Origin: Candidatus Jettenia sp. AMX2
GTDB taxonomy: Bacteria > Planctomycetota > Brocadiia > Brocadiales > Brocadiaceae
DNA: 64,000 bases
NCBI GenBank assembly: GCA_030583665.1
Contig: CP129469.1
Span: forward strand, 124,001 to 188,000
Direction: 5' to 3'
Below, in pieces: positions 44,212-49,048 of this stretch. Position numbers and translations under genes: made by a program. The notes under the pieces were generated by a model. The model made no database searches, had not been told where the DNA came from, and saw only the letters and a program-made list of their open reading frames with translations. Within the stretch, counting starts at the first letter, position 1. Each line of letters begins with the position of its first letter.

Positions 44212-45777
44212 TTATTCTCTCATGCACATCTTCAGCCTACGGATCCGCTCCCACGTGGCAAAGAAATCCTTCAGCCAGTCATTATATCTAAGGATTCGGT
44301 ATACGATCTTCCTCCCCGTTTTCAGGATTTGACAGGGAAGTAAAATCAGGGTATTCAGAAACCGTCGAAATTCCATCTTCTGTACCTGCATTCCCCTCAC
44401 CGCGTTGGGCATCAACAACCCAAACCATGACTTTAAATTCCACGCCAGCGCTGCCATGACCATATACGCCCAGTTGCTCTCCAAATCCCTTACCGGCATC
44501 TTCATCGCATTTACACCGTTCTTCAACTGCTCTACCACATTCTCCTGATCACAGCGCCCGTTTGCCAACTCCACCAATTCCTCTGCCGTCATATCCCGCC
44601 GGGTAGTAATGTAAAAAAAGTATCGTATATCATCAAGCAACACCTTCTCGCCCTTTTCTACACTCAGGTTTTTCATCAGCACAATTACCCGATAGCTCTG
44701 TTTACACTTCATTGGCCGATACTCAAACTCCGACACATGCTCACTCGCCAAACGAATATCCTTATATTCTCGTTCCTTCACGATCCGCTCTTTTACCTTT
44801 TCCGGCTTGCTTCTCTCCTTGGTCTTTACCCTATATTTCGGTTTACGGCTTAACACCCTCCATGCTTTCCCCGGTAACTCCTCTGCATGTCTTACCAGAA
44901 CCTTATGTGCATCCATCCCAAAAACAAAGTCTACCTCCCGTGACCACCGATCAAAATTCTCCGTCAGCGAAAAGTCCGTGTCTCCTCTCACACATATCCG
45001 CCTGGCATACGGCTTCACCAATCCTATCGCACGGTCTACCCACTCCACACACCCATCATGGCTCGGCTTGTTACCAGGTCTATTTACCAGATACAACACC
45101 TCTTTCGTATTCCACAACGATATGATTAACGGTGCATATCCCCATATCCCTTTGTACGATATGTCCATCCCCTCTTTACATCCACCATATGTCTTCGCTA
45201 TCGTACCGTCTATATCAACCAGCGCTTCTTCAAGGATCTCCTTTCTCGCTTCTTTCCATACACGAAGCCGACCTGTATTGATGCACTCCATCAGCTTTAG
45301 AATATCTTCTCTCCTGAACCGCCGGGTAAAATCTCCGGCTGTCGTCGGGTCTGGTATCCTCTGCGCTCCCACTGCGTTCAGATACCCCTCATCCTGACGA
45401 TTCAGCTCTATATCCTCTAATCGTATATTCCCTGAAAGAACATTATACGCTATGTTCAATACATGATCTGATTCATGGTAGGGCATGTGCATCTTCAACA
45501 ATTCAAGTTTCTCGTCAATCTCTTTTACTAACCCGCATTTTAGCACCATCTGATGGATTGCTCCTATCCCTCCACAGTTTATTGCCTGGTTCCTTTCTGC
45601 TATCTCGTAATGAATGTTCCTCGCTCTGAACATCGGTCGGTCTTGCTCTTCCCACTGCTTCCGCCCCAGTCGCCTTTCGATTTTTTGTTTCCTTCTGCTG
45701 AGTATTTTGTTATACTTCTGTTCTGATTTTTTGCTCATCTGAAATGCCCCTTTTTCTGGTTGTTGGTTTTTTTGCAA
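44212..45777 (-). CDS. IS1380-family transposase
   Basis: 521 residues (Met14, MSKKSEQKYN, is an alternative start). DDE catalytic residues appear as VDIDGTIAKTYGG (first Asp), CVRGDTDFSLTENFDRW (second Asp) and ANGRCDQENVVEQLKNGVNAM (Glu in the C-terminal helix), the IS1380/IS4-group layout. The frame is intact, so the element may be active. It differs strongly from the second IS1380-like transposase at 57596-59113. Confidence 0.92.
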   Translation of the reverse strand: MQKNQQPEKGAFQMSKKSEQKYNKILSRRKQKIERRLGRKQWEEQDRPMFRARNIHYEIAERNQAINCGGIGAIHQMVLKCGLVKEIDEKLELLKMHMPYHESDHVLNIAYNVLSGNIRLEDIELNRQDEGYLNAVGAQRIPDPTTAGDFTRRFRREDILKLMECINTGRLRVWKEARKEILEEALVDIDGTIAKTYGGCKEGMDISYKGIWGYAPLIISLWNTKEVLYLVNRPGNKPSHDGCVEWVDRAIGLVKPYARRICVRGDTDFSLTENFDRWSREVDFVFGMDAHKVLVRHAEELPGKAWRVLSRKPKYRVKTKERSKPEKVKERIVKEREYKDIRLASEHVSEFEYRPMKCKQSYRVIVLMKNLSVEKGEKVLLDDIRYFFYITTRRDMTAEELVELANGRCDQENVVEQLKNGVNAMKMPVRDLESNWAYMVMAALAWNLKSWFGLLMPNAVRGMQVQKMEFRRFLNTLILLPCQILKTGRKIVYRILRYNDWLKDFFATWERIRRLKMCMRE

Positions 45778-45887: not shown

Positions 45888-46646
45888 TCATTTCCGGATA
45901 AGCGGAACAAACCGGACCGGAACGATCGATTTCTTTATGATTTTTGAAGAAGCATCCTTGGTGATCAGCATCAGGTCCTGTATTGCATATACACCCCCTA
46001 CCGGTATAACCATACGGCCCCCAGGTTTAAGCTGATCAATGAGTGGCTGAGGAATATATTCTGCGGCGGCAGTAACAATGATTGCATCAAACGGGGCATG
46101 TTCCGGCCAGCCCTTATACCCGTCACCAATCTTCACATTAATATTTGTGTATCCAAGCATCTCAAGCCTTTCCCTGGCCTCTTTGCCAAGCCCTTCCAAA
46201 ACCTCTATGGTGTATACCTTTTTTACAAGCATCGAGAGAACAGCAGCCTGATAGCCTGAACCGGCACCTACCTCAAGTACAACGTCATCTTTATCAGGCT
46301 CTATCAGTTCTGTCATAAAGGCAACGATATATGGTTGGGAAATCGTTTGTCCGTACCCGATAGGTACCGGTTGGTCGGAATAACTGAGAATCCGCCTTTC
46401 CTCAGGTATAAATAAATGACGTGGCACGGTACCCATAACTTCCAGCACCTTTTTATTCTGTATACCCCGGCTGACAAGCTGCTCCTCAACCATCCGCTTG
46501 CGCTGGCGTGTAAAGGAATCTTCATCGATTACCGAAAGATTTTTTCCTGCGAGAAAAACCGGATCCCTGTTGCAGGCAAAAAGGATGATTAAAAAAATGA
46601 CAGCTGCTGTACTGACAATGAGAAGCGCATTCATACTTATCTTCAT
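45888..46646 (-). CDS. pcm: Protein-L-isoaspartate O-methyltransferase with export segment
   Basis: 252 residues. The core (from about residue 45) has RKRMVEEQLVSRGI, PVPIGYGQTISQPYIVAFM and the SAM motif DDVVLEVGAGSGYQAAVLS, then FDAIIVTAAAEYIPQPLIDQLKPGGRMVIPVG: full-length Pcm, which methylates isoaspartyl residues to start their repair. Ahead is a hydrophobic helix (residues about 8-24) ending LFAC, which resembles a lipobox, so the enzyme may be anchored outside the cytoplasm. That is odd for a SAM-dependent enzyme. It starts 27 bases after selD and is probably co-transcribed with it. Confidence 0.93.
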   Translation of the reverse strand: MKISMNALLIVSTAAVIFLIILFACNRDPVFLAGKNLSVIDEDSFTRQRKRMVEEQLVSRGIQNKKVLEVMGTVPRHLFIPEERRILSYSDQPVPIGYGQTISQPYIVAFMTELIEPDKDDVVLEVGAGSGYQAAVLSMLVKKVYTIEVLEGLGKEARERLEMLGYTNINVKIGDGYKGWPEHAPFDAIIVTAAAEYIPQPLIDQLKPGGRMVIPVGGVYAIQDLMLITKDASSKIIKKSIVPVRFVPLIRK

Positions 46647-46673: not shown

Positions 46674-47723
46674 TTAAGGTTTTACGATGATGGAAACATC
46701 CTGCCTTTTCTGTACTTCACCAATAATTTCTGCAGTCATAACACCTCTTTCCCTGAGTTTTGAACAGAATATTCCGGCTTTCTCTTCGGAAAGTGAAATA
46801 AGCAAACCTCCTGAAGTCTGTGCATCAAAGAAGACGTCTGCCAGCGTCTCCCGCACTTTAGGGTCTATTTTTATTGCGTTTTTTAAATATTTTTTGCTGA
46901 GCTTTGATACCCCCGGTATCAATCCCATCTTGACATAGCGTTCGCAACCGGCAAATACCGGTATGCATCCGGCAAAGAAGATTAAGGTTACCATACTTGC
47001 CTCAGCCATCTCGTATGCATGCCCCAAAAGCCCAAAACCTGTAATATCGGTGCAAGCATCAACACCTACTTCAACCATTATCTCAGAAGCCGTTCTGTTT
47101 AACAGGGACATGCTTTTCGTTGCAAGACTTACATGTTCTTCAAGAACCTTATTTGCCTTAATAGCTGAAATAATTAATCCTGTGCCCAGTGATTTTGTTA
47201 GTACTAATACATTCCCTGCCTTAGCACCTGCGTTGGTTACAATTTTACGGGGATGAACAATTCCGGTAACCGACATTCCATACTTAATTTCAGTATCCTG
47301 CAAGGTATGGCCACCAACAACTGCTGCGCCTGCCTCATGGGCCTTGTCTGCTCCACCCTTCAGTATTCCGATCAGAATATCCTTGTCGGATAAATTCAAT
47401 GGGTAGCAAAGAATGTTCATGGCTGTGATAGGTTTGCCACCCATGGCATAAACATCACTTAAGGCATTTGCTGCTGCTATCAACCCATAATCATAAGGAT
47501 CATTCACAACCGGCGTGAAAAAATCCAAGGTTGATACCGTAGCGATCTCATCGGTAATTTTGTAAACACCTGCATCGGCAAAGGTTTTGGGACCGACAAG
47601 CAGGCACTCGTCCTGATACTCCGGTAAATTATTCAGCACATATGCCATGTCTTCGACGGGGACTTTTCCTGCTCACCCGGCACATGTTGCATAATCAATA
47701 AGCCGTTTTTTTCTCCACAACAA
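46674..47723 (-). CDS. selD: Selenide, water dikinase SelD, selenocysteine-containing
   Basis: Read conventionally the frame starts at an ATG (47648), which would lack the catalytic N-terminus. Upstream and in frame, a TTG at 47723 sits 7 bases after a GGGAGGAGGT ribosome site and encodes LLWRKKRLIDYATCAG, then TGA (47673-47675), then AGKVPVEDMAY. The TGA falls where other SelD proteins have catalytic Cys or Sec, three residues before the conserved Lys (GxGCGCK in E. coli). So TGA very likely encodes selenocysteine in a 349-residue protein. Other SelD motifs: STLDFFTPVVNDPYDYG, NALSDVYAMGGKP, AVVGGHTLQD, ACTDITGFGLLGHAYEM. It makes selenophosphate from selenide and ATP. Confidence 0.93.
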
Positions 47724-47872
47724 GGGTATCACCTCCTCCCGGTATGCTTTTTCCGCAAACAGCGTTAATGCGCATAACGTCTTACGTATTTGTGCATAAT
47801 TTCATTAGTATAGTAATTTTCTTTTATGTGAATGGTAAACTTTATTCCCTGCAAAATCAATTCTTTTATTCT
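47724..47872. other. Short gap kbl-selD with ribosome site
   Basis: About 150 bases. The GGGAGGAGGT ribosome site (complement of 47731-47740) sets the selD start at the TTG. Confidence 0.6.
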
Positions 47873-49048
47873 TCACACAATATGCAAAGACTTCCCTATC
47901 TTTTCAAAACATTCAATAGCCCATAAAAGATCATCACGACTATGTACAGCAGAAAGCATAACACGGATACGCGCACTGCCCACCGGTACCGTAGGGTAAC
48001 CAATTGACTGAGCGAAAATCCCTTCTTCAAATAATTTTTGACTAAGCTCCCTGGCAACCCTGGCATCACCGGTTATGACAGGGGTTATGGGAGTTTTTGT
48101 CCGGCCAAGATTAAATCCGATGTGTCTCATTTTTTCCTGAAAAAATGTGGCATTTTCCCGTAATTGTTTCACCAGTACATCAGAAGCTGCGAGAATATCC
48201 ACCGCTGTAATACAAGCCGCTGTATCGGCAGCAGTCGCAGCGCTGGAAAAGAGAAAAGGACGTCCTTTTTGCGTCAAATAATCCGTTATTTTTTTATTTG
48301 CTGCAACATACCCGCCTACTACCCCAAACGCCTTTGACAGGGTACCTACTTCAATATCAACCCTGCCGTGAAGATTACAATGATCAACGATACCTCTGCC
48401 GCTCCGCCCCAGTACCCCCTCTCCATGAGCATCGTCTACCATGATAATAGCCCCAAAGCTTTCTGCAATCCCTGCAATCTCGGAAAGCGGTGCAATATCA
48501 CCTTCCATACTGAAAACGCCGTCGGTAATAATAAGTTTACGCCTGGCATTTTTTTCACCCGATAATTTTGTCTGAAGATCCTGGAAATTACAATGCTCAT
48601 ATCGTATGATCCTAGCCTTTGAGAGACGGCATCCGTCAATGATGCTTGCGTGATTGAGCTCATCGGAAAGAACCACATCGCCTTCACCCACAATTGCGGG
48701 AATTACCGCAAGGTTTGCACAGAATCCCGATTGGAATGATAAAACACTTTCCACACCCTTAAATGCTGCGAGTTTTTGTTCCAATTGCCTGTGCAGCGCC
48801 GTAGTTCCGGCAATAGTCCTTACCGATGCGGGACCTACGCCGTATGTCTCAACAGCATTTTTTGAAGCAGCTTTTAATACGGGATTATTGGCAAATCCGA
48901 GATAATTGTTCGAGCAGAGGTTTAATACCCTCTTCCCCTCCACCGTTATCCATGCCCCTTGCGGTCCTTCAATAGTCCGAATATGGGTCAGCAATCCATT
49001 TTCCTTCAGTTTATCAAGTTCTTCGGTAATAAAATCAAGTTTTCCCAT
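47873..49048 (-). CDS. kbl: 2-amino-3-ketobutyrate CoA ligase (glycine C-acetyltransferase)
   Basis: 391 residues, alpha-oxoamine synthase family of PLP enzymes. Motifs: [71 protein letters not shown], and [13 protein letters not shown] with the PLP Lys. It splits 2-amino-3-ketobutyrate with CoA into glycine and acetyl-CoA. A GGAG ribosome site is present. It lies 75 bases after tdh, whose product is its substrate, so the pair is the threonine-to-glycine pathway. Confidence 0.95.

What the first reader, a model, noticed from the sequence alone, without database searches (positions are those of the whole stretch)
46674..47723. selD carries an in-frame UGA at the catalytic residue and starts 25 codons upstream of the first ATG
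The frame reads CAG-UGA-AGK exactly where SelD enzymes have the catalytic Cys/Sec three residues before an essential Lys, and the TTG start has a near-consensus ribosome site at correct spacing. A start at the ATG would remove the catalytic motif. This implies a working selenocysteine system and that SelD helps make itself. Automatic annotation would probably truncate it.
Basis: partly seen in the sequence, partly recalled or inferred. Interest (0 to 1): 0.75.

Follow-up and report, generated by a model that had tools for sequence, protein, structure and literature searches.

The report
Selenocysteine SelD with a hidden hairpin
An anammox bacterium makes its selenium-activating enzyme SelD with selenocysteine in the active site, as many bacteria do, but its gene also carries, about 750 bases further on, an unexplained RNA hairpin that has been preserved almost letter for letter across two bacterial families.

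Summary
The minus-strand frame 47723-46674 is a full SelD with one in-frame UGA at residue 17, followed by Lys20, starting 25 codons before the first ATG. It is not a sequencing error: all 24 Brocadiaceae orthologues that reach the N-terminus, and all 8 of a sister family, have TGA there. The genome holds selA, selB, a UCA-anticodon tRNA-Sec and a Sec formate dehydrogenase; genomes lacking selD lack Sec-FdhA, with one exception (a 58%-complete assembly). So this is a genuine Sec-SelD, a known kind of selenoprotein. The UGA-proximal SECIS is only a weak candidate: a 4-bp stem with its loop at +18, where the fdhA SECIS of the same genomes has its loop.

The surprise lies elsewhere. The strongest synonymous conservation in selD is at codons 262-279 (46940-46887), not at the UGA. 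It centres on a hairpin, UUGAUACC-GGG-GGUAUCAA (46922-46904), whose stem is invariant or G-U-compatible in 24 Brocadiaceae. In the sister family it is rebuilt by double compensatory changes (CUGAUGCC...GGCAUCAG). It occurs once per genome, only in selD, whatever gene follows, and no Rfam family matches. It is probably a cis-acting element of selD mRNA. It is not a SECIS by position or loop, and its function is unproven.

The parts
46674..47723 (-). selD, selenide, water dikinase, 349 residues with Sec at residue 17; TTG start, TAA stop
47732..47737 (-). Shine-Dalgarno AGGAGG, 8 nt before the TTG; a G-rich block stands at the same place in the family
   Evidence: sequence shown
47721..47723 (-). 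start codon TTG; the column is NTG in 24 of 24 orthologues
47673..47675 (-). UGA codon 17, Sec; TGA in 24/24 Brocadiaceae and 8/8 sister-family orthologues
47645..47659 (-). candidate UGA-proximal SECIS: CCGU-(CGAAGAC)-AUGG, loop at +18 after the UGA; weak, 4 bp; contains the ATG that a truncated annotation would use
46887..46940 (-). block of extreme synonymous conservation, codons 262-279
   Evidence: controls
46904..46922 (-). conserved hairpin UUGAUACC-GGG-GGUAUCAA inside selD, about 750 nt downstream of the UGA; function unknown
45888..46646 (-). pcm, protein-L-isoaspartate methyltransferase, next gene downstream; frequent but not constant neighbour
47873..49048 (-). kbl-type PLP acyltransferase, upstream neighbour

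Best explanation
The gene is a functional selenoprotein SelD of an anammox bacterium (Brocadiaceae). UGA17 is decoded as Sec by the genome's own SelA/SelB/tRNA-Sec, so SelD contributes selenophosphate to its own synthesis and to Sec-FdhA. This part rests on comparative evidence (about 0.97 sure); Sec insertion itself was not observed. Separately, the selD coding region of Brocadiales carries a selected hairpin at codons 268-274. I infer (about 0.6 sure) that it is an RNA element acting in cis on selD mRNA, through expression, stability or ribosome pausing, possibly with a bound protein. It is most likely not the Sec insertion signal.
For: Sec-SelD: family score and match to solved SelD; TGA17 conserved 24/24 and 8/8; selA, selB, tRNA-Sec UCA and Sec-fdhA in the same genome. 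Seven of the eight family genomes without selD also lack a TGA-containing fdhA; the eighth is 58% complete. The selenouridine synthase family is absent from this genome, so Sec is the only known use found for SelD here. Hairpin: the top synonymous-conservation window is codons 263-273 (excess 0.41, 0 of 5000 permutations), while neighbours pcm and kbl show nothing. As a positive control, the same test on fdhA peaks at the UGA and its SECIS. Two pairs changed on both sides between families, 98.3% of cells are paired, and slid controls give 32-62%. Every one-sided change within the seven lower pairs gives G-U on the selD strand. It occurs once per genome and only in selD. It is kept where the downstream gene is convergent or unrelated.
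Against: No direct evidence of Sec in the protein. The UGA-proximal SECIS is weak and lacks the GGU loop seen in fdhA and in several more distant Sec-selD genes. The compensatory changes in the distal hairpin both lie on the one split between two families, so they may be only one or two events. A palindromic DNA-binding site would also keep symmetry. The sister family alone does not reach significance in the synonymous test.
Confidence: 0.8

Rival explanations
1. The distal palindrome is a DNA operator: a dimeric protein binds TTGATACC-N3-GGTATCAA inside selD.
For: It is a perfect 8+8 palindrome with a 3-nt spacer, and some regulators bind inside genes. Symmetric compensatory change would also fit a dimer site.
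Against: The site occurs once per genome and none lies at selAB, selC or fdhA. It is kept whatever gene follows. One-sided changes in the seven lower pairs are all G-U compatible on the mRNA strand only. The first loop base never varies in 32 sequences, although synonymous changes there would keep the stem.
Confidence: 0.25
2. The distal hairpin is the true, displaced SECIS of selD, acting over about 750 nt.
For: The UGA-proximal region has no strong conserved hairpin in Brocadiaceae, and the distal hairpin has G at the start of its apical loop, as bacterial SECIS elements do.
Against: Bacterial SECIS elements lie directly after the UGA (established knowledge). The fdhA SECIS of the same genomes does so, with an invariant GGUCU loop, whereas the distal loop is GGG, GGC or GUG. 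A weak candidate stands at the right spacing.
Confidence: 0.05
3. UGA17 is a nonsense mutation or sequencing error, and the gene works from the ATG at codon 26 or is dead.
For: There is an open ATG frame of 324 codons.
Against: TGA17 is found in 32 of 32 orthologues, with the reading frame conserved on both sides and a full Sec machinery present.
Confidence: 0.01
4. The synonymous conservation at codons 262-279 reflects protein or codon-usage constraint only.
For: The encoded peptide RYV(K/R)MGLIPGVSKLSK is well conserved.
Against: The test normalises by amino acid and gene-wide codon use. Synonymous changes that break the stem are not seen in Brocadiaceae, whereas pair-keeping ones occur. Sister-family changes are compensatory. 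pcm and kbl show no such window.
Confidence: 0.06

Closest known systems
Sec-containing SelD, selenophosphate synthetase
   Same: Sec/Cys17 and Lys20, AIRS domains, TIGR00476 equivalog, UGA with SelA/SelB/tRNA-Sec in the genome. SelD is one of the two most widespread bacterial selenoproteins (PMC1794560).
   Different: Only the host, an anammox planctomycete, and the extra internal hairpin.
Bacterial SECIS element (fdhA type)
   Same: Short stem-loop in the coding region with G at the start of the apical loop.
   Different: The distal selD hairpin has no UGA upstream at SECIS spacing and no GGU loop; the fdhA SECIS of the same genomes has both.
SECIS-like element before selAB of E. coli (from memory, not checked here)
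   Same: A hairpin in the mRNA of a Sec-machinery gene with no UGA to decode.
   Different: Here it is inside the coding region of selD, and SelB binding is unknown.

Membership tests
SelD (selenide, water dikinase) | Whole-protein match above the curated cut-off | tested here: met
   TIGR00476, 354.5 bits against cut-off 125
SelD (selenide, water dikinase) | Catalytic Cys/Sec17 and Lys20 | tested here: met
   U17 and K20 in the translation; alignment with solved SelD
SelD (selenide, water dikinase) | Selenophosphate synthesis activity | not testable with these tools
   no biochemistry
Bacterial selenoprotein | In-frame UGA conserved or replaced by Cys in orthologues | tested here: met
   TGA in 24/24 and 8/8; TGC/TGT in some more distant relatives
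Bacterial selenoprotein | selA, selB and tRNA-Sec in the genome | tested here: met
Bacterial selenoprotein | SECIS hairpin 16-37 nt after the UGA with G in the first two loop bases (rule from memory) | tested here: inconclusive
   4-bp stem with loop at +18 present in all 24 and all 8, but weak and without a GGU loop
Bacterial SECIS (for the distal hairpin) | Lies directly downstream of a UGA | tested here: not met
   about 750 nt from UGA17 and no other in-frame UGA
Rfam RNA family (for the distal hairpin) | Match to a described family | tested here: not met
   no match up to E 5

The most novel reading that the evidence does not exclude
Brocadiales selD carries an undescribed cis-acting RNA element inside its coding sequence, conserved across two families. 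It controls selD expression, perhaps in response to selenium or Sec-tRNA supply, and is separate from the Sec insertion signal.
Probability: 0.5. Interest if true: 0.6.

Novelty: new member of a known kind. Interest (0 to 1): 0.42.

Why it matters
It shows that most Brocadiaceae anammox genomes carry a full selenocysteine system with SelD and FdhA as selenoproteins, which bears on their selenium needs; I found no paper on it in the held library. The internal hairpin, if it acts on selD mRNA, would be a new kind of control on selenium metabolism. It is also a clear case in which synonymous conservation inside a gene points to an element that annotation does not see.

Tried and rejected
Distal SECIS: rejected as unlikely (position, loop, fdhA control). 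Fossil SECIS for Cys260, whose TGY codon lies 29 nt before the hairpin loop: rejected, because the sister family keeps the hairpin with Ser, Thr, Ala or Cys there (sequence reading), and a fossil would decay. Genome-wide repeated palindrome: rejected, since other hits of the pattern are scattered and have other loops; the one other GGG-loop near-match in this genome lies in a purN-like frame. Regulation of pcm: rejected, since the hairpin stays where pcm is absent or the next gene is convergent. Long-range pairing of the GGG loop with the UCCCCG after the UGA: the UGA region ranks high but is not unique, left as a weak lead.

Full report
Check of the observation. The minus-strand frame 47723-46674 reads LLWRKKRLIDYATCAGUAGKVPVEDMAY... 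with one in-frame TGA at residue 17 and a TAA stop. AGGAGG lies 8 nt before the TTG, and the first ATG of the frame is codon 26 at 47648. Read through, the protein is SelD: 354.5 bits against TIGR00476 (cut-off 125), and alignment with solved SelD structures. A start at the ATG would lose Sec17 and Lys20.

Is it real? The host is a Brocadiaceae anammox bacterium; the closest named loci are Ca. Jettenia ecosi (81%) and Ca. Loosdrechtia aerotolerans (78%). Of 33 genomes of the family, 25 have selD; 24 of these reach codon 17 and all 24 have TGA. In a sister family of the same order, 8 of 9 genomes have selD at 56-60% identity, all with TGA17. Several more distant class members have TGC or TGT at the same place. 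Codon 1 is NTG in 24 of 24 while codon 2 varies, and the sister family starts with ATG one to two codons further in, still upstream of the UGA. Four relatives have CTG at codon 1, so their true start is less certain. Sequencing error and pseudogene are excluded.

The decoding system. The closed 3.46 Mb genome holds selA (C1:1420483-1421865, 574.6 bits), selB (C1:1418144-1420027, 390.6 bits), tRNA-Sec with anticodon UCA (C1:1585566) and an FdhA with one in-frame TGA in its NVDQCART-U-HAPSVAG motif (C1:2052954-2054948). Across the family, 21 of 25 selD genomes have selB and 23 of 25 have tRNA-Sec; most of the gaps are in incomplete assemblies. Of the eight genomes without selD, seven also lack a TGA-containing fdhA; the eighth is 58% complete. 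No selenouridine synthase was found in this genome, so Sec is the only known use of SelD found here.

The SECIS. In fdhA of the same genomes the UGA is followed by a textbook element, CGUCGCC-GGUCU-GGCGAUG, with the loop starting 19 nt after the UGA, and synonymous conservation peaks there. Several more distant Sec-selD genes have GGU-type hairpins about 32 nt after the UGA (sequence reading). Brocadiaceae selD has neither. What all 24 and all 8 share is a 4-bp stem, CC(G/A)U...AUGG, with a 7-nt loop starting at +18 that has G in its first two bases. This fits a bacterial SECIS in position but is weak. Synonymous conservation over codons 18-31 is only mild (p 0.03). I call it a candidate.

The unexpected feature. 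The same test, run over the whole of selD, put the peak far from the UGA: codons 263-273, excess identity 0.41, reached in none of 5000 permutations. The downstream gene pcm and upstream gene kbl show nothing comparable. The block reads CGCTATGTCARGATGGGATTGATACCGGGGGTATCAAAGCTC and holds a perfect hairpin, UUGAUACC-GGG-GGUAUCAA, which is also the most stable conserved structure in selD. Within Brocadiaceae the observed stem changes, codon 269 ATA to ATG or GTA and codon 272 GTA to GTG, all turn a Watson-Crick pair into G-U. In the sister family two pairs have changed on both sides (U-A to C-G and A-U to G-C), the second by way of a G-U form that is still present in some Brocadiaceae, and the innermost pair is lost in half of the sequences. 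Pairing is 98.3% against 32-62% for slid controls. Both double changes fall on the one split between the two families, so they are few events.

Where it occurs. A covariance model of the 48-nt block finds it once in each sampled genome of the two families that has selD, always in selD, and in none of the other 280 planctomycete genomes searched. A looser pattern search agrees: the GGG-loop form is specific to selD, and other matches are scattered with other loops. It is kept where pcm is not the next gene and where the next gene is convergent. No Rfam family matches.

Interpretation. Sec-SelD is established by comparison and is a known kind: SelD and FdhA are the two most widespread bacterial selenoproteins (PMC1794560). 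The hairpin is best read as a cis-acting element of selD mRNA, because G-U compatibility on the mRNA strand, a fixed loop base and independence from neighbours all favour RNA over a DNA operator, though a DNA site is not excluded. It is not a SECIS by position or loop. A link to SelB or selenium status is speculation. What the hairpin does is the open question, and it can be tested directly.

Noticed in passing
window 46940-46887, minus strand: Extreme synonymous conservation and a conserved hairpin inside selD, described in the report as the main new feature.
   Followed up: yes
G011 (genome search handle), 99% complete: Has Sec-selD, tRNA-Sec and Sec-fdhA but no selB at E 1e-60; assembly gap or a divergent SelB.
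   Followed up: no
G012 and G013: selB (and tRNA-Sec in G013) without selD; fragmented assemblies.
   Followed up: no
window 44212-45777, minus strand: IS1380-family transposase just downstream of pcm.
   Followed up: no
G014, C152:7781-7866: A second tRNA-Sec-like hit (53.7 bits) besides the normal one.
   Followed up: no
L033-L036, selD codon 1: CTG stands at the start column in four relatives; either a CTG start or a start slightly upstream.
   Followed up: no
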